This document shows positions 2,875 to 7,646 of a DNA stretch of 49,446 bases, in pieces. Within the stretch, counting starts at the first letter, position 1. Each line of letters begins with the position of its first letter. The DNA is taken from positions 1-49,446 of the forward strand of contig VAWK01000004.1 of the NCBI GenBank assembly GCA_005885515.1, read 5' to 3'. The translations under genes were made by a program, and so were the position numbers. This DNA comes from Actinomycetota bacterium (GTDB taxonomy: Bacteria > Actinomycetota > Thermoleophilia > Solirubrobacterales > Solirubrobacteraceae). The notes beneath the pieces were generated by a model. It saw only the letters and a program-made list of their open reading frames with translations, did no database searches and was not told the origin of the DNA.

Positions 2875-5295
2875 CTAGCGCGCGTCCGAGTGCGCCCCAG
2901 CGGTCTCGTGCCGCGCCAGCACCTCGCGTAGCGAGGCCACCACTTCCTCTGCCGCCTGTGCGCGCGTGTCCGGCTGGGCGTGTGCCCGCCGCCTGGCTCT
3001 GCCGCGGGGGTCAATCGCGCGCAGCTCGTCGAGAAGCACCTCGACGACCTCGGGGTCGAACTGGCACCCGGCCTCGCGCCGAAGCTCGCGGCAGGCGGCA
3101 TCGTGGGCGCGCCGGGGGCGGTAGCAACGGTCGGTTGTCATCGCCTCATACGCGTCGCACGCCGCGATGATCCGCGCGCCCAGAGGGATGTCGGCTCCCG
3201 CTAGGCCGTCGGGATAGCCCTTCCCGTCCCAGCGCTCGTGGCTCGCGCGCACGAGCACGGCCACCGGGCGCAAGGCCGGCGCCGCGCTGAGGATGCGCTC
3301 GCCGAGGATCGTGTGCTGGTGCATGAACGCCCACTCCGCGTTGTCGAGGCCATGCGGCTTCTCGAGGATCGCATCGGGGATCCCAACCTTGCCGATGTCG
3401 TGCAGCTCGGCCGCGCGCGAGAGCTCGTCGAGCTCCTCCGCGGTCATCCCGAGCCGACGGCCCACGCGGAGGCACAGCTGAGCCACCTCGCTCGAATGGT
3501 CCTGAAGCGAGGGCTGCCGCGCGTGCATGATGCGCATGAGCACGTCGCGCGCCTGGTCGGCCGCCAGCGAGGGGCGGCGCTTCTTGCGCGCGTACATCCG
3601 TTGATCGGCGAGCTGCAGTGCGTAGTCCAGCGTGGACGCCTCGTGCGGAATCAGCACGGCGCCGTAGGAGGCGCCGACCGCGAACTTCTCACCGCGCTCT
3701 TCGAGCGCTGCCGCTGCGGCGCCGATCAGGCTGTGCAGCTCGCTGGATTGGGCACCGGCCAGCACGCAGAACTCGTCCCCACCCAGCCGGTACGCGGTCC
3801 CGTGGCTGCGGACCGCGTCGGCGAGCTTCGTGCCGAGGCGCGCGAGCACCGCGTCGCCGGCGAGGTGCCCAAAGGTGTCGTTGTAGTTCTTGAAGCCGTC
3901 GAGGTCGAACAGGATGAGCACTAGCGGCAGCGATTCGGATGCGTTCTCGCTCCGCTCGGCCAGGTCGGCCTGGAGCTTGCGCCGGTTGCCGAGTTTGGTA
4001 AGCGAGTCGGTGAGCGCCTGCTTGCGCAGCAGCTGATGGGCGACGATGTCGGTCGCAGCCTGCCGTGCCTGCTCCACGAGACCGCGCATGACGTCTTCCT
4101 CGTCGTCGCGAAACGCCCGGCCCTCCCGCGCCACCGCGAGCGCGCCACGGGCGCGGCCGGCGTCGCTCGAGAAACCGAGCGGCAGCGACAGCGCCCAGAT
4201 GCCGTCGCGCTCGACCTGCGATGCGTCCTCGTTTGCGAGCGTCCGCTCAACCGCCGCGTTCAGCGCGGGCGCCACACGGTCCGAGGTCGCGATCTCGACC
4301 ACTCGCGGCTGCTCCAGCCCGCGCAGCTCCAGGCGACCGGCGTCCGCGTCGAGCGCCTCGACGGAGCCGCGAAGCACGATGTCCGTGAGCGCCTCGAGAT
4401 CGAGCTTGGCGGCGAGCGCCTCGCCCAGGCGCCGCACTGCCGTCTGCAGGCGCGTGCGCTCGCGTGCGATGAGGTCCAGGCGGCGCTGTGCCTGGGCGAT
4501 GCGCTCGGTGCGCTCGCGTGAGATCAGCAGCAGCAGGGCGTTGAACGGGACCAACAGCAGGACCCCGGCGTGGTGACGGTGTGCCGCGTATGCGACGAGC
4601 AGTCCGAGCGGAGCGATGCAGGCGTCGATCACCCACACCACCCCGATCACCCGTATCTGCACGCGCGAGCGGATCCCGAGGATGGCCGACTCGCGCACCG
4701 TCGCCGTGACGAGGTCGACCACGCAGCCCGCGAGGAACGCGGCGGCGTACAGCAGCGGTGACAGCCGCACGCTCCCGTGGAAGGGACCGGCGGCCACCAG
4801 CACCGCCGCTGGGCCGAGGGTGTGCCAGGCGTCCGAGATGGCAAAGAACACGCGCTCTGGCTCCGCCCTCCGGACGGCCGCCAGCACGAGCGTCCCGAGC
4901 ACGAGGCTGCAAGCCGTGAGCAGCGGCACGGCCCCGGGCGGAAGCAGCAGCAGCATCGGCACGAGCACCATGTAGGAGGGCACCACGTAGCCTGCCCCGA
5001 TAGGGAACTTGATCAGGCACGACAGCGCATACAGGACCATCAGCCCGCCAGCCAGCAGCGGGTCTATCTGGTTGGAGCCCAGCGCGGACAGCGCCAGGGG
5101 GATGGCCAGCACGAGGAACAGCGTCGAGGCCGCTGTCTCGACGAGCAGCTCGCGACGGCTGACCCGTCGCGAGCGAGTTTTCCACGAGTCTTCGAGCAGG
5201 CGCTCCACCGGACGGGTGGAGCGCAGGTCCTCGAGCGTGGAGTCGGTCGTGGACGTGGCCTTGCTCATGGGAAAAGTGGGCGGCGTGCGTTCCAT
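2875..5295 (-). CDS. Membrane GGDEF + HD-GYP c-di-GMP signalling protein
   Basis: 806 residues. About residues 50-255 form a multi-helix membrane region; roughly 260-420 resembles a coiled linker and GAF-like sensor. A diguanylate cyclase domain follows with an intact GGDEF motif at about 505-509, then an HD-GYP phosphodiesterase domain with HDIGKVG (HD at about 632) and HERWDGKGYPDG (about 686-698). Both catalytic signatures are intact, so the protein could both make and break c-di-GMP; which activity dominates cannot be read from sequence. An ATG at 5268 is an alternative start. It lies 42 bp downstream of, and on the same strand as, the riboswitch-preceded secreted-protein gene, so read-through from that gene could place it under the same control. 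Confidence 0.93.
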   Translation of the reverse strand: MERTPPTFPMSKATSTTDSTLEDLRSTRPVERLLEDSWKTRSRRVSRRELLVETAASTLFLVLAIPLALSALGSNQIDPLLAGGLMVLYALSCLIKFPIGAGYVVPSYMVLVPMLLLLPPGAVPLLTACSLVLGTLVLAAVRRAEPERVFFAISDAWHTLGPAAVLVAAGPFHGSVRLSPLLYAAAFLAGCVVDLVTATVRESAILGIRSRVQIRVIGVVWVIDACIAPLGLLVAYAAHRHHAGVLLLVPFNALLLLISRERTERIAQAQRRLDLIARERTRLQTAVRRLGEALAAKLDLEALTDIVLRGSVEALDADAGRLELRGLEQPRVVEIATSDRVAPALNAAVERTLANEDASQVERDGIWALSLPLGFSSDAGRARGALAVAREGRAFRDDEEDVMRGLVEQARQAATDIVAHQLLRKQALTDSLTKLGNRRKLQADLAERSENASESLPLVLILFDLDGFKNYNDTFGHLAGDAVLARLGTKLADAVRSHGTAYRLGGDEFCVLAGAQSSELHSLIGAAAAALEERGEKFAVGASYGAVLIPHEASTLDYALQLADQRMYARKKRRPSLAADQARDVLMRIMHARQPSLQDHSSEVAQLCLRVGRRLGMTAEELDELSRAAELHDIGKVGIPDAILEKPHGLDNAEWAFMHQHTILGERILSAAPALRPVAVLVRASHERWDGKGYPDGLAGADIPLGARIIAACDAYEAMTTDRCYRPRRAHDAACRELRREAGCQFDPEVVEVLLDELRAIDPRGRARRRAHAQPDTRAQAAEEVVASLREVLARHETAGAHSDAR

Positions 5296-5337
5296 GCCGC
5301 CTACCCACTTCCCCTATCGGCCGATGTCGGCGTTTAC

Positions 5338-5955
5338 CTAACGCCTGTAGGGATCGATGTACAGGTTGTAGAGCTGGAAATCGCTCTTCTTCCCGCCCGC
5401 AACCAGCGTGAGCCGCAAAACCTGCCACCCGGTCACGTTTTCGGGCTGCAGGTTCACCGGGGTAGACAGCGTCCATGCCGTGCCGCTGCCGTGCACCTGT
5501 CCGGTGTTCTTGGGCTTTTCCCAAGTGGTTGTGCCTTCGTAGGAAACGTTGAGGTAAACGCCCTCGGAACCGGCCAGATCGCGCACGAGCGTGCGTGCCG
5601 TGGGATAAAGCGAGGTCACGCAGAAGCTCGGGCTGACAGCCTTCGAGCCGCTTGGCAGATCAAGCACGTAGCCCGTGCTGCCGTCTGCGAGCGTGGTCGT
5701 CTTGATCGACGCCCCGCCGCTGAGCGTCCACCCCGTCCCTTCGAAGTTGCCAGGCGTCTGCCCCGGCGCGAGCACGTAGTAGTTGTTGTCACCCGCGTCC
5801 TGGAACGGCTGCGTGAGCGTGGGTTCCTTGCACTGCGAGGTTTCCTTCGCCGGGGAAGTGGCGGCCTGCGCGGAAGCGGCTCCGAAGACGAGCAGCGCGG
5901 TGCAAGCAGCCACGACCCCGCTTGGGAACCTCCGAGGACGAACTATGTATGGCAT
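5338..5955 (-). CDS. Secreted protein controlled by a c-di-GMP riboswitch
   Basis: 205 residues with a Sec-type signal peptide: basic start, hydrophobic core (VVAACTALLVFGAASAQA), and likely cleavage after Ala-Gln-Ala near residue 31. The mature part is rich in Thr, Gly, Ser and aromatic residues and looks all-beta, with two cysteines (in TSQCKEP and SFCVTS). I recognise no catalytic motif; a surface, adhesin-like or matrix protein is possible. The ATG has an AAGGAGG site at 5963-5969. A GEMM-type riboswitch lies in the leader, so expression should respond to c-di-GMP, and the next gene encodes a c-di-GMP enzyme. Confidence 0.8.
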   Translation of the reverse strand: MPYIVRPRRFPSGVVAACTALLVFGAASAQAATSPAKETSQCKEPTLTQPFQDAGDNNYYVLAPGQTPGNFEGTGWTLSGGASIKTTTLADGSTGYVLDLPSGSKAVSPSFCVTSLYPTARTLVRDLAGSEGVYLNVSYEGTTTWEKPKNTGQVHGSGTAWTLSTPVNLQPENVTGWQVLRLTLVAGGKKSDFQLYNLYIDPYRR

Positions 5956-5960
5956 TCAGG

Positions 5961-5992
5961 GACCTCCTTGTCCGTGTCACGGAGACCGTGAC
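5961..5992 (-). promoter_or_regulatory. Riboswitch expression-platform hairpins around the RBS
   Basis: Between the aptamer and the start codon is a perfect 7-bp inverted repeat, GTCACGG / CCGTGAC with a 3-nt loop (5976-5992). Next comes a ribosome-binding site (AAGGAGG) flanked by GGAC...GTCC arms that could hide it in a small hairpin. No U-run follows the first hairpin, so control of translation seems likelier than termination. The switching mechanism is inference. Confidence 0.55.
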
Positions 5993-5999
5993 GGTTCGG

Positions 6000-6080
6000 G
6001 AGAGTCGGCAGCCGGGCGGTCTGCGGGAGATCCCTGGCTTTGCGTCCCCGCCTCGCGACGGGTTTGCCCTGAGCGACGTC
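6000..6080 (-). promoter_or_regulatory. Cyclic di-GMP-I (GEMM-I) riboswitch aptamer
   Basis: Read on the minus strand the leader contains AGGGCAAACC, then a stem CCCGTC-GCGA-GGCGGG closed by a GNRA tetraloop, then GGACGCAAAGCC, a second stem-loop, and a closing GGCTGCCGA. Order and spacing match the GEMM-I class (Rfam c-di-GMP-I): two conserved blocks flanking a GNRA-capped helix, and a second helix able to carry the tetraloop receptor. It lies about 50-120 nt upstream of the start codon of the secreted-protein gene and beside a GGDEF/HD-GYP gene, both fitting c-di-GMP sensing. The outer boundary (P1 stem) is approximate. Confidence 0.9.
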
Positions 6081-6166
6081 TGTTGACTTGTCAGCAGCAG
6101 ATCGGTGGCGCCGGCTGCCCGCATGAGTCGCGGCGGCCGCTGGTGGACAAAGGGCCGACGCGCGTG

Positions 6167-6183
6167 TCGTCCTTTTGGGACGA
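6167..6183 (-). terminator. Hairpin after the carboxypeptidase gene
   Basis: TCGTCC / GGACGA form a perfect 6-bp stem with a 5-nt loop, starting 5 nt after the stop of the M32 gene and before the riboswitch. There is no strong U-run, so it is a candidate factor-independent terminator or 3'-end stabilising structure only. Confidence 0.4.
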
Positions 6184-6188
6184 TGGCC

Positions 6189-7646
6189 CTACGGCGTGCG
6201 AGCCGCGAGCGGCGCCACGTAGCGCAGGAACGGCTCGATGTCCAGGCTGCGCCCTGTGGCCTGCCTGATCAGCGGAATCGTGTCCAGGCGCCGTCCGTAC
6301 CAGTGGACGTGCTCGGCCAGCCAGGCCTTGATCGGACCGACCTCGCCACGGCGCAGATCCTCTTCGCGCGGTCCGAGCTCGGACTCCATCGCCTCCCACA
6401 GCTGCGCCGCGATCAGGCAGCCCAGCGCGTAGCTTGGGAAGTAGCCGAAGCTGCCCGCGCCCCAGTGGATGTCCTGCAGGCAGCCCTGTGCGTCCGAGGG
6501 CACCTCGACCCCGAGCAGCCGTTGCATGCCATCGTGCCATGCGGCAGGCAGATCGATCACCGCGAGCTCGCCTTCGATCATCGCCAGCTCCAGTTCGAAG
6601 CGCAGGATGATGTGCAGCGGGTACGTCAGTGGATCGGCGCTGACCCGGATGAGCGAGGGTTCCACCGCGGTCAGCGTGGCGTGCAGGTCGGCGGGCGCGA
6701 GGGGGAAGCCCGCCCCCTCGAGCTCGCCCGCGAGCACCTCGGCGAACGCGGGGCTGCGGGCGACGTGGTTCTCCCAGAGCTTGCTCTGGGACTCGTGGAT
6801 CGACATCGACGTCCCGCGCCCGAGGTTGGTCCGCACCAGCGCGGGGTCTATCTGGCGCTCGTAGAGACCGTGGCCGTACTCGTGCAGCGAGCTCAGCAGC
6901 GACTCCACGTTGCCGTCGCTGTAGCGAGTCGTCAGGCGCGTGTCCGAGCGCCCGATCCAGGCGGTGAACGGGTGCGGCGCGACGTCCAGTCGCCAGCCCT
7001 GCTGATCGACGCCTACTCGCCGCAGCGTGTTCCTGACCGCCGTGTGCTGCACGTCTACCGGCACCGCGAGCTGGCGACGCGGCGAGTGGGCGCGCACCTG
7101 CTCCGCGAGCGGCGGCAGCGCCGCACCGAGGGCGCTGAACAGCTCCCGCAGCATCGCGGTCTCCAGGCCGAAGTCGTACTCGGCCAGCAGCTCCTGATAT
7201 GGGCCGGTGCCGCACTGTGTCAGGCACTCTCCGTATTGGCGCGCGAGCCCCACGTTGCGCTCGAGCGCGGGCGCGAAGCCTGCGAAATCATCGTTCGCCC
7301 GCGCGCGCCGCCAGCTCTCCTGGCCCTCGGCGTGGGCCCGGGAGCGCTCGGCGGCGAGATCCGCCGGTATGCGGCAAGATCGCTCCCACTCCCGTCGCGC
7401 CACGCGCACGATGTCGCGGTCGAGATCGCCCAGCTGCGCGACCTCGAGAGCGGCCAGCCATTCCCCGATCTCCTCGCCGGTCGCGCGTTCGTGCGCGAGC
7501 TGCGCCAGCGCACCCAGCTGGTTGGCCCTGGCCTCCGCGCCCCCGCTCGGCATCATCACCAGCTGATCCCACGTCGCGAGCATGTCCAGCGCGCCCAGGT
7601 CTGCGAGCTCGGCCATGCGCTCGCGCAACCGCTGCAGGGGATCCAC
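6189..7646 (-). CDS. M32 family metallocarboxypeptidase (carboxypeptidase Taq type)
   Basis: 485 residues from GTG 7646 (VDPLQRLRERMAELADLG), which matches the usual start of the family; a TTG at 7685 would add 13 residues. The zinc-binding HEYGH motif is at about 255-259, followed by GTSMSIHESQSKLWEN, a signature of M32 enzymes that supplies further active-site residues. M32 enzymes remove C-terminal residues from peptides in the cytoplasm, and no signal peptide is visible. The C-terminal half keeps the family segments (TYPLHIILRFELE, DIHWGAGSFGYFPSYALG). The gene is divergent from the YbdK-type gene. Confidence 0.95.
   Translation of the reverse strand: MDPLQRLRERMAELADLGALDMLATWDQLVMMPSGGAEARANQLGALAQLAHERATGEEIGEWLAALEVAQLGDLDRDIVRVARREWERSCRIPADLAAERSRAHAEGQESWRRARANDDFAGFAPALERNVGLARQYGECLTQCGTGPYQELLAEYDFGLETAMLRELFSALGAALPPLAEQVRAHSPRRQLAVPVDVQHTAVRNTLRRVGVDQQGWRLDVAPHPFTAWIGRSDTRLTTRYSDGNVESLLSSLHEYGHGLYERQIDPALVRTNLGRGTSMSIHESQSKLWENHVARSPAFAEVLAGELEGAGFPLAPADLHATLTAVEPSLIRVSADPLTYPLHIILRFELELAMIEGELAVIDLPAAWHDGMQRLLGVEVPSDAQGCLQDIHWGAGSFGYFPSYALGCLIAAQLWEAMESELGPREEDLRRGEVGPIKAWLAEHVHWYGRRLDTIPLIRQATGRSLDIEPFLRYVAPLAARTP

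What the first reader, a model, noticed from the sequence alone, without database searches (positions are those of the whole stretch)
6000..6080. c-di-GMP-I (GEMM) riboswitch upstream of an unknown secreted protein
The minus-strand leader has AGGGCAAACC, a GNRA-capped stem (CCCGTC/GGCGGG with GCGA) and GGACGCAAAGCC in the order of GEMM-I aptamers. It precedes a signal-peptide protein of unknown function, so c-di-GMP would control secretion of something specific. This gives a direct handle on what the messenger does in this organism.
Basis: partly seen in the sequence, partly recalled or inferred. Interest (0 to 1): 0.75.

Follow-up and report, generated by a model that had tools for sequence, protein, structure and literature searches.

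The report
c-di-GMP switch for a secreted protein
A soil actinobacterium carries an RNA sensor for the bacterial messenger c-di-GMP in front of a gene for an exported protein that looks like a carbohydrate-binding module; the sensor is of a known kind, but the exported protein belongs to a family I could not name, whose genes often sit beside enzymes that make or break the same messenger.

Summary
The finding is right. Window 6077-6003 (-) is a c-di-GMP-I (GEMM-I) aptamer: RF03167 "c-di-GMP-I-GGC" 63.5 bits, E 9e-13; RF01051 58.0 bits, gathering 35. The GGC label misleads: its consensus has G where the canonical model and the window have A (Vc2 A47); 154 of 154 aptamers examined have A. The genome has five aptamers; three precede the three copies found of the secreted protein. 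That protein has no Pfam, NCBIfam or PDB sequence match; its predicted fold resembles carbohydrate-binding modules. In the genus 12 of 14 members follow an aptamer; outside it 4 of 24 examined. 29 of 38 family loci carry parts of a GGDEF/HD-GYP-type membrane enzyme within 1.5 kb, against 0 of 28 controls; in the window it is the next gene. Genes behind aptamers are mostly exported: 100 of 114, against 13 of 45 window genes. Folding with swap controls favours a translational ON switch; binding and direction are untested. Known kind of switch; the regulon and secreted family seem new.

The parts
6003..6077 (-). c-di-GMP-I (GEMM-I) aptamer; contact positions G20 = 6068, A47 = 6041, C92 = 6008 (Vc2 numbering; C92 placed partly by recall)
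   Evidence: RF03167 63.5 bits, RF01051 58.0 bits; numbering from passages
6074..6077 (-). P1 5' strand GUCG, able to pair with CGAC at 6007-6004
   Evidence: read; used as constraint
6042..6067 (-). P2 with GCGA tetraloop at 6056-6053
   Evidence: alignment; pairs listed
6010..6039 (-). P3 (with one A-C mismatch); its 5' strand CCAGGGATCTCC (6037-6026) is also complementary to the Shine-Dalgarno region
   Evidence: pairs listed; minimum-free-energy fold
5999..6006 (-). GACUCUCC: 3' strand of P1 plus a CUCC able to pair with the Shine-Dalgarno GGAG/GUC (second possible anti-Shine-Dalgarno)
   Evidence: GACCUC/GAGGUC at the same place in the G405, G387 and G208 leaders
5976..5992 (-). hairpin GUCACGG-UCU-CCGUGAC between aptamer and ribosome-binding site
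   Evidence: folds; a hairpin of different sequence at the same place in the G387 leader
5957..5967 (-). Shine-Dalgarno region GGAGGUCCCUG
   Evidence: GGAGGUCC invariant in six aligned leaders
5338..5955 (-). secreted 205-aa protein, predicted carbohydrate-binding-module-like beta-sandwich, one of three paralogues found
5270..5314 (-). strong hairpin between the secreted gene and the enzyme gene (possible attenuator or terminator)
   Evidence: -37 kcal/mol for 5345-5270, z -4.05; the pattern scan did not list it
2875..5268 (-). membrane protein with GGDEF and HD-GYP-type HD domains (the ORF opens at 5295; a start at 5268 is more likely by comparison with S. soli)
   Evidence: Pfam GGDEF 1.2e-33, HD_5 2.2e-37; orthologue behind the homologue in Solirubrobacter soli L043
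6149..6172 (-). imperfect palindrome within GGACGACACGCGCGTCGGCCCTTT (candidate operator)

Best explanation
It is a c-di-GMP-I riboswitch with a canonical binding pocket in the leader of a gene for an exported, carbohydrate-binding-module-like protein. Most likely it acts on translation and turns the gene ON. Without ligand the leader hides the Shine-Dalgarno sequence: the P3 5' strand, or the P1 3' strand plus the CUCC after it, pairs with GGAGGUC(CCUG). High c-di-GMP would then raise a matrix or adhesion protein; in relatives the same kind of aptamer precedes other exported proteins (pilin-like proteins, glycoside hydrolases, proteases and more). Shown by computation: the aptamer, its pocket bases, the paralogue pattern, the genes behind sister aptamers and the neighbourhood with c-di-GMP enzymes. 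Inferred: ligand binding, the ON direction, the translational level and the matrix role.
For: Aptamer. Base A at position 47 in 154 of 154 aptamers examined, GCGAAG in 0 of 154. The three copies of the protein found in the genome start 47-48 nt behind an aptamer. 12 of 14 family members in the genus follow an aptamer. Free leader: Shine-Dalgarno core unpaired 0.00 in the three window-type leaders; 0.67, 0.24 and 0.53 when P1 and anchor pairs of P2 and P3 are forced (0.67, 0.23, 0.51). Of the 28 of 45 genus leaders with a GGAG well placed for such a test, 16 open, 1 closes and 11 change little when the aptamer is forced. Against leaders with downstream parts swapped between genes, native leaders hide the site more and open more: 0 of 40 swaps as extreme for either; with two near-identical leaders dropped (26 leaders), 3 of 300 and 2 of 300. 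Exported-looking genes behind aptamers 100 of 114 against 13 of 45. Fold.
Against: No binding or expression data. Nearest-neighbour energies put the aptamer fold 10-14 kcal/mol above the free fold for the three window-type leaders (10.7-14.8) and 4-17 for the 28 leaders; the model holds no tertiary or ligand energy and no co-transcriptional folding, so this is weak but unfavourable. With P2 and P3 but not P1 forced the site stays hidden (0.00-0.01). The duplex between P3 and the Shine-Dalgarno region is not a general rule: swap tests were not significant (genus and class together 1037 of 5000, genus 700, class 2671), and for the window alone it is 8 of 5000 against composition shuffles but 242 of 5000 against random GC-rich flanks. 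Class I switches in C. difficile appear to be OFF switches (PMC11477304, passage cut at its start). The likeness to carbohydrate-binding modules is by fold only (TM-score by query length 0.47 for the best hit).
Confidence: 0.68

Rival explanations
1. Same riboswitch, but an OFF switch: c-di-GMP closes P1 and lets the local structure with CUCC:GGAG hide the Shine-Dalgarno site, so the secreted protein is made at low c-di-GMP, for example for dispersal.
For: The sequence after the aptamer folded on its own pairs CUCC with GGAG in the C30 and C39 leaders, though not in C68. C. difficile class I switches appear to be OFF, one of them before a secreted protease (PMC11477304 passages).
Against: Forcing the aptamer raises predicted site accessibility in all three window-type leaders and in 16 of 28 leaders, and lowers it in 1 of 28; swap controls.
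Confidence: 0.22
2. It is a true member of the c-di-GMP-I-GGC variant class and may prefer another ligand.
For: RF03167 outscores RF01051 at this place (63.5 against 58.0 bits).
Against: The RF03167 consensus has GACGCGAAgCc, the RF01051 consensus GACGCAAAgCc, the window GACGCAAAGCC; 154 of 154 aptamers examined have A there.
Confidence: 0.05
3. A degenerate aptamer: the sequence is kept by duplication of the cassette but no longer regulates.
For: The three cassettes are near identical in the aptamer (0-1 differences), as recent copies or gene conversion would give; P3 has an A-C mismatch.
Against: The proteins have diverged to 62-69% identity with the window copy while the aptamer stayed nearly unchanged; contact bases, GNRA loop and P1 are intact; the association recurs in other species.
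Confidence: 0.05

Closest known systems
Vibrio cholerae Vc1 riboswitch before gbpA (PMC4744006, passages seen)
   Same: Class I c-di-GMP aptamer in the leader of a secreted protein that aids colonisation of surfaces; reported to act as an ON switch; contact residues G, A, C conserved
   Different: There the start codon lies 244 bp after the transcription start and no apparent terminator or anti-Shine-Dalgarno was seen; here the ATG lies 122 nt after the aptamer start, a candidate anti-Shine-Dalgarno is visible and a c-di-GMP enzyme gene follows. The two secreted proteins were not compared
Rfam RF03167 c-di-GMP-I-GGC aptamer
   Same: Best-scoring model over the whole aptamer
   Different: Lacks the model's G at the position of Vc2 A47
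C. difficile c-di-GMP riboswitch network (PMC11477304, passages seen)
   Same: Riboswitches control adhesins, a secreted protease and type IV pili, kinds of genes also found behind aptamers here
   Different: There class I and class II aptamers share the tasks, and class I appears to be OFF; here only class I was looked for and the predicted direction is ON
Carbohydrate-binding modules (CBM4, CBM6, CBM22, porphyran CBM 8xmz)
   Same: Predicted beta-sandwich fold: best hit 8xmz_A E 5.6e-6, TM-score by target length 0.65
   Different: No sequence match in PDB (0 at E up to 1), Pfam or, for the window protein, NCBIfam; sugar binding untested. Some non-CBM beta-sandwich proteins are also among the hits

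Membership tests
c-di-GMP-I riboswitch aptamer (RF01051) | Covariance-model score over gathering cut-off | tested here: met
   58.0 bits against 35
c-di-GMP-I riboswitch aptamer (RF01051) | Ligand contacts G20, A47, C92 | tested here: met
   G at 6068, A at 6041, C at 6008 (position names from passages; C92 register partly recalled)
c-di-GMP-I riboswitch aptamer (RF01051) | GNRA loop on P2 and the C44-G83 interhelical pair | tested here: met
   GCGA at 6056-6053; C at 6044 and a bulged G at 6017, read from the alignment and the pairs; docking itself not tested
c-di-GMP-I riboswitch aptamer (RF01051) | Binds c-di-GMP and changes gene expression | not testable with these tools
   needs probing or a reporter assay
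c-di-GMP-I-GGC variant (RF03167) | Score over gathering cut-off | tested here: met
   63.5 bits against 59
c-di-GMP-I-GGC variant (RF03167) | G at the position of Vc2 A47 (that the name GGC stands for bases 20/47/92 is recalled, not read) | tested here: not met
   A at 6041; consensus letters; GCGAAG in 0 of 154 aptamers
cyclic AMP-GMP sensing GEMM-I variants | A at position 20 (recalled) | tested here: not met
   G at 6068 in the window; by a pattern count 45 of 45 genus and 108 of 109 class aptamers have G
Carbohydrate-binding module families | Sequence membership of a described family | tested here: not met
   no match (dedicated CBM libraries were not available)
Carbohydrate-binding module families | Beta-sandwich fold | tested here: met
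   model mean pLDDT 84.5, Foldseek hits; a second look with VIA-align was not available

The most novel reading that the evidence does not exclude
The secreted protein and the neighbouring membrane GGDEF/HD-GYP enzyme form a closed c-di-GMP module: the enzyme sets c-di-GMP, the riboswitch reads it to make the secreted carbohydrate-binding-like protein, and that protein works outside the cell as sensing partner or ligand of the enzyme's membrane domain, so that contact with a polysaccharide or surface feeds back on c-di-GMP. The neighbourhood is kept in most loci that have no riboswitch, and in one relative (G363) a gene matching the enzyme's membrane and GAF parts lies on another contig but shares a palindromic element with the secreted gene.
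Probability: 0.2. Interest if true: 0.75.

Novelty: new member of a known kind. Interest (0 to 1): 0.45.

Why it matters
What c-di-GMP does in this mostly uncultured actinobacterial class seems little described in the papers I could search (0 papers; one search lists one on a sigma/anti-sigma c-di-GMP switch that mentions the class, seen as a listing only). The aptamers found here mark a candidate regulon: exported CBM-like proteins, prepilin-like proteins, glycoside hydrolases and a polysaccharide lyase, subtilases, CAP proteins, collagen-like and camelysin-like proteins, and two c-di-GMP enzymes. It also gives an unnamed secreted family a functional context, next to c-di-GMP enzymes, that can be tested directly.

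Tried and rejected
Duplex test of Shine-Dalgarno regions against their own aptamers: no signal (34 leaders kept of 48 after dropping similar ones, starts up to 60 nt: whole aptamer 2495 of 5000 swaps as good, P3 1037, P2 1631). A narrower test on 19 short-spacer genus leaders gave 46 of 10000 for the P3 3' half, with 5599 for the P3 5' half and 1824 for P2; relatedness of the leaders can inflate it.

The idea that the secreted family always has the riboswitch: rejected. Outside the genus 4 of 24 loci examined, the best-scoring ones, one per genome, have one (L202, L203, L205, L225), and the Solirubrobacter soli locus has none.

The GGC label: rejected on its diagnostic base. A first count of this base gave G in 15 of 45 and 39 of 109; that was a misplaced pattern in leaders reading GGCGCAAAG. 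One search printed T for the three window-type aptamers for a like reason, and the last-match counter printed C or T for 14 aptamers for a like reason; their letters are listed there and each contains GCAAA. The plain letter count (154 of 154 with GCA at this place, 0 of 154 with GCGAAG) is the one used; one search agrees with it. The count of C at position 92 is weak, since its pattern could only return C or no match; a match was found in all 154.

Sigma-70-type promoter near the leader: none found. Sequence relatives: none in PDB, none in Pfam for the window protein, only chance-level single-member hits in NCBIfam.

Papers: the 2017 paper that (by recall) named the GGC variant and the 2015 cyclic AMP-GMP paper are not held.

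Full report
What was checked. The parent model RF01051 matches the same place at 58.0 bits (cut-off 35). Neither family is found in the 14 control genomes.

Which kind of aptamer. In the RF03167 alignment the consensus reads GACGCGAAgCc where the window reads GACGCAAAGCC; in the RF01051 alignment of a sister aptamer the consensus reads GACGCAAAgCc. The differing base is A47 in Vc2 numbering, one of the ligand contacts G20, A47, C92 (passages of PMC4744006 and PMC3764141). That 'GGC' stands for these three bases is my recollection; the naming paper is not held. I examined 154 aptamers: the 45 listed for the genus and 109 others from the class, taken from the best-scoring part of the capped list. 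All 154 have A there and 0 contain GCGAAG (one search agrees). By a pattern count position 20 is G in 45 of 45 and 108 of 109. The pocket is that of an ordinary c-di-GMP-I aptamer, so I do not file it under the GGC variant.

The genome. The window lies in a 2.69-Mb assembly (92% complete) with five such aptamers; four pass the RF03167 cut-off and all five pass that of RF01051. The one relative of the secreted protein found in genome contigs, a search for close relatives only, is in Solirubrobacter soli (class Thermoleophilia), so the host is probably of that class; the genome itself is unnamed. RF03167 matches occur in 165 of 399 class genomes searched, in 125 over the cut-off, and in 20 of 24 genus genomes, in 18 over the cut-off.

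The secreted protein. The 205-aa ORF 5955-5338 starts 47 nt behind the aptamer. The search of the genome finds two further copies (69% and 62% identity), each 47-48 nt behind its own nearly identical aptamer. The other two aptamers precede a GHL15-type glycosyl-hydrolase gene, with what look like exopolysaccharide genes behind it by my reading of the ORFs, and a very short ORF followed by cysK- and cysE-like genes (names by my reading). The secreted protein has no Pfam match at E 0.01, no NCBIfam match at E 1 and its family profile has no PDB sequence match at E 1. A 15-member alignment shows 13 invariant columns including two cysteines and two tryptophans. The AlphaFold2 model (mean pLDDT 84.5; the first 40 residues poorly placed) is a beta-sandwich, and Foldseek's top PDB hits are mostly carbohydrate-binding modules (8xmz E 5.6e-6, CBM4-2, CBM36, CBM6, CBM22), with MAM domains, phage tailspikes and other beta-sandwich proteins among them. 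The best hit's TM-score by query length is 0.47, so this is likeness of fold, not proof of sugar binding.

Association with the aptamer. In the genus the family has 14 matches in 9 of 24 genomes; 12 of 14 lie directly behind an aptamer listed. For the two others (L197, L201) cmscan finds none. Outside the genus the tie is loose: 4 of 24 loci examined (L202-L225, the best-scoring, one per genome) have an aptamer. The family occurs in 91 of 399 class genomes. In a phylum-wide draw it is in 9 of 396, two of the nine outside the class and one of those a fragment.

Association with c-di-GMP enzymes. The next gene in the window encodes a membrane protein with GGDEF and HD-GYP-type domains. The same pair is adjacent in S. 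soli, G405 and G387. tblastn with the enzyme's membrane, GAF, GGDEF and HD-GYP parts finds at least one of them in 29 of 38 family loci (+-1.5 kb where the contig allows), HD-GYP in 20, GGDEF in 6, the membrane part in 19; in two loci (L223, L224) and in L193 only the membrane part was seen. L191/L198 overlap and L223/L224 gave identical hits. In 28 aptamer loci of the same flank size from outside the family and genus it finds 0. HD_5 domains number 0-14 per genome in 21 relatives, so roughly 1% of such windows would hold one by chance (my estimate). Layouts differ: enzyme downstream in tandem, or upstream and divergent. Two of the window genome's own three copies (C39, C68) have no enzyme beside them (L011, L012). 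In G363, where the secreted gene has no aptamer, a palindrome GGACGACACGCGTGTCGTCC lies upstream of it, and a near copy lies upstream of a gene on another contig whose membrane and GAF parts are 56% and 60% identical to the enzyme's; the rest of that gene lies beyond the stretch held. The pattern search is loose: 13 matches in 24 genomes against 6 for the reversed control. The window has an imperfect copy at 6149-6172.

The regulon. Of 154 leaders, 146 had a callable ORF start within 150 nt (8 had none); 114 had strong codon bias, and 100 of these 114 have a hydrophobic N-terminal stretch by a simple hydropathy rule, against 13 of 45 genes called in the window. The 32 weaker calls were left out of the count, and the rule does not tell signal peptides from membrane segments. 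The largest clusters are prepilin-like proteins (15; named by the GFTLxELLVV motif, my reading), subtilases (15), the window's family (14), long secreted proteins with glycosidase-like parts (14) and GHL15-like proteins (10). Pfam scans of 30 of the 33 representatives I had listed gave Peptidase_S8, CAP, GHL15, GH5, GH26 and GH42-type, polysaccharide lyase, beta-helix, camelysin-like, GGDEF and HD domains among others, and collagen just under its cut-off; 10 of 30 had no match at E 0.001.

How it likely works. Folded alone, all three window-type leaders pair the P3 5' strand CCAGGGAUCUCC with GGAGGUCCCUG, leaving the GGAGG core unpaired with probability 0.00. With P1 and anchor pairs of P2 and P3 forced it becomes 0.67, 0.24 and 0.53. 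With P1 left out it stays hidden (0.00-0.01), probably through the P1 3' strand plus CUCC. In leaders of three other species (G405, G387, G208) the same place reads GACCUC and the Shine-Dalgarno region GAGGUC, so closing P1 and freeing the site look coupled. Of the 45 genus leaders, 28 had a GGAG placed for the test; 16 open, 1 closes and 11 change little when the aptamer is forced. Because any forced helix frees some sequence, I swapped downstream parts between leaders: native leaders hide the site more (0.231 against 0.300) and open more (0.152 against 0.080), with 0 of 40 swaps as extreme. With two near-identical leaders dropped and 300 swaps, 3 and 2 were as extreme. No terminator-like site on the minus strand was found by the pattern scan of 5200-6300. 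I therefore favour a translational ON switch. Against this: the forced aptamer fold is 10-14 kcal/mol less stable in the model for the three leaders, the duplex tests on the wider set are flat, and the window duplex is only moderately unusual (8 of 5000 shuffles, 242 of 5000 random flanks).

Comparison with the known. The nearest worked example I saw is V. cholerae Vc1-gbpA, a class I switch before a secreted colonisation factor, reported as ON (PMC4744006, passages). The kinds of target resemble the C. difficile network (PMC11477304, passages). No paper in the library holds Thermoleophilia, riboswitch and c-di-GMP together. The listings showed none on this regulon, but searches listed 20 of 158, 20 of 21 and 10 of 36 papers. 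Most subscription papers are not held, so absence from print is not shown.

Verdict. An ordinary, well-supported riboswitch in a little-studied class, with a coherent candidate regulon and a secreted family, often beside c-di-GMP enzymes, that the family libraries searched do not describe.

Noticed in passing
window 6149-6172 (-); L246, L247, L252, L254: Palindromic element GGACGACACGCG(C/T)GTCG(G/T)CC upstream of two of the aptamer cassettes (a diverged copy before the third); in G363 it lies before the secreted gene and before a gene on another contig that matches the enzyme's membrane and GAF parts, so it may be a shared operator.
   Followed up: partly
G000:C79:43994-44074 (L005, L009): A c-di-GMP-I aptamer (RF01051 61.2 bits) precedes a tiny ORF followed by cysK- and cysE-like genes, an unusual target for c-di-GMP (gene names by reading the ORFs).
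   Followed up: no
L081, L092, L093, L103, L104 and other genus leaders: Some genus aptamers replace the P2 internal loop AAA/GAC by ACC/CTC, ACA/CTC or similar. All 11 genus members of the cluster of long secreted proteins with glycosidase-like parts have such a loop, AC in its first two bases; it may be an aptamer subtype.
   Followed up: partly
window 5270-5314: Very stable hairpin between the secreted gene and the enzyme gene, with a UUUU inside its 3' arm; the upstream ATG at 5295 lies in its loop region.
   Followed up: partly
L162 (G228:C11:196459-197707): Two aptamers about 1.2 kb apart, each before a related gene; the second encodes a polysaccharide-lyase-like protein.
   Followed up: no
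L133 (G040:C1) and L094 (G288:C2): Aptamers 58 and 20 nt before GGDEF and HD-domain genes, suggesting feedback on c-di-GMP turnover.
   Followed up: no
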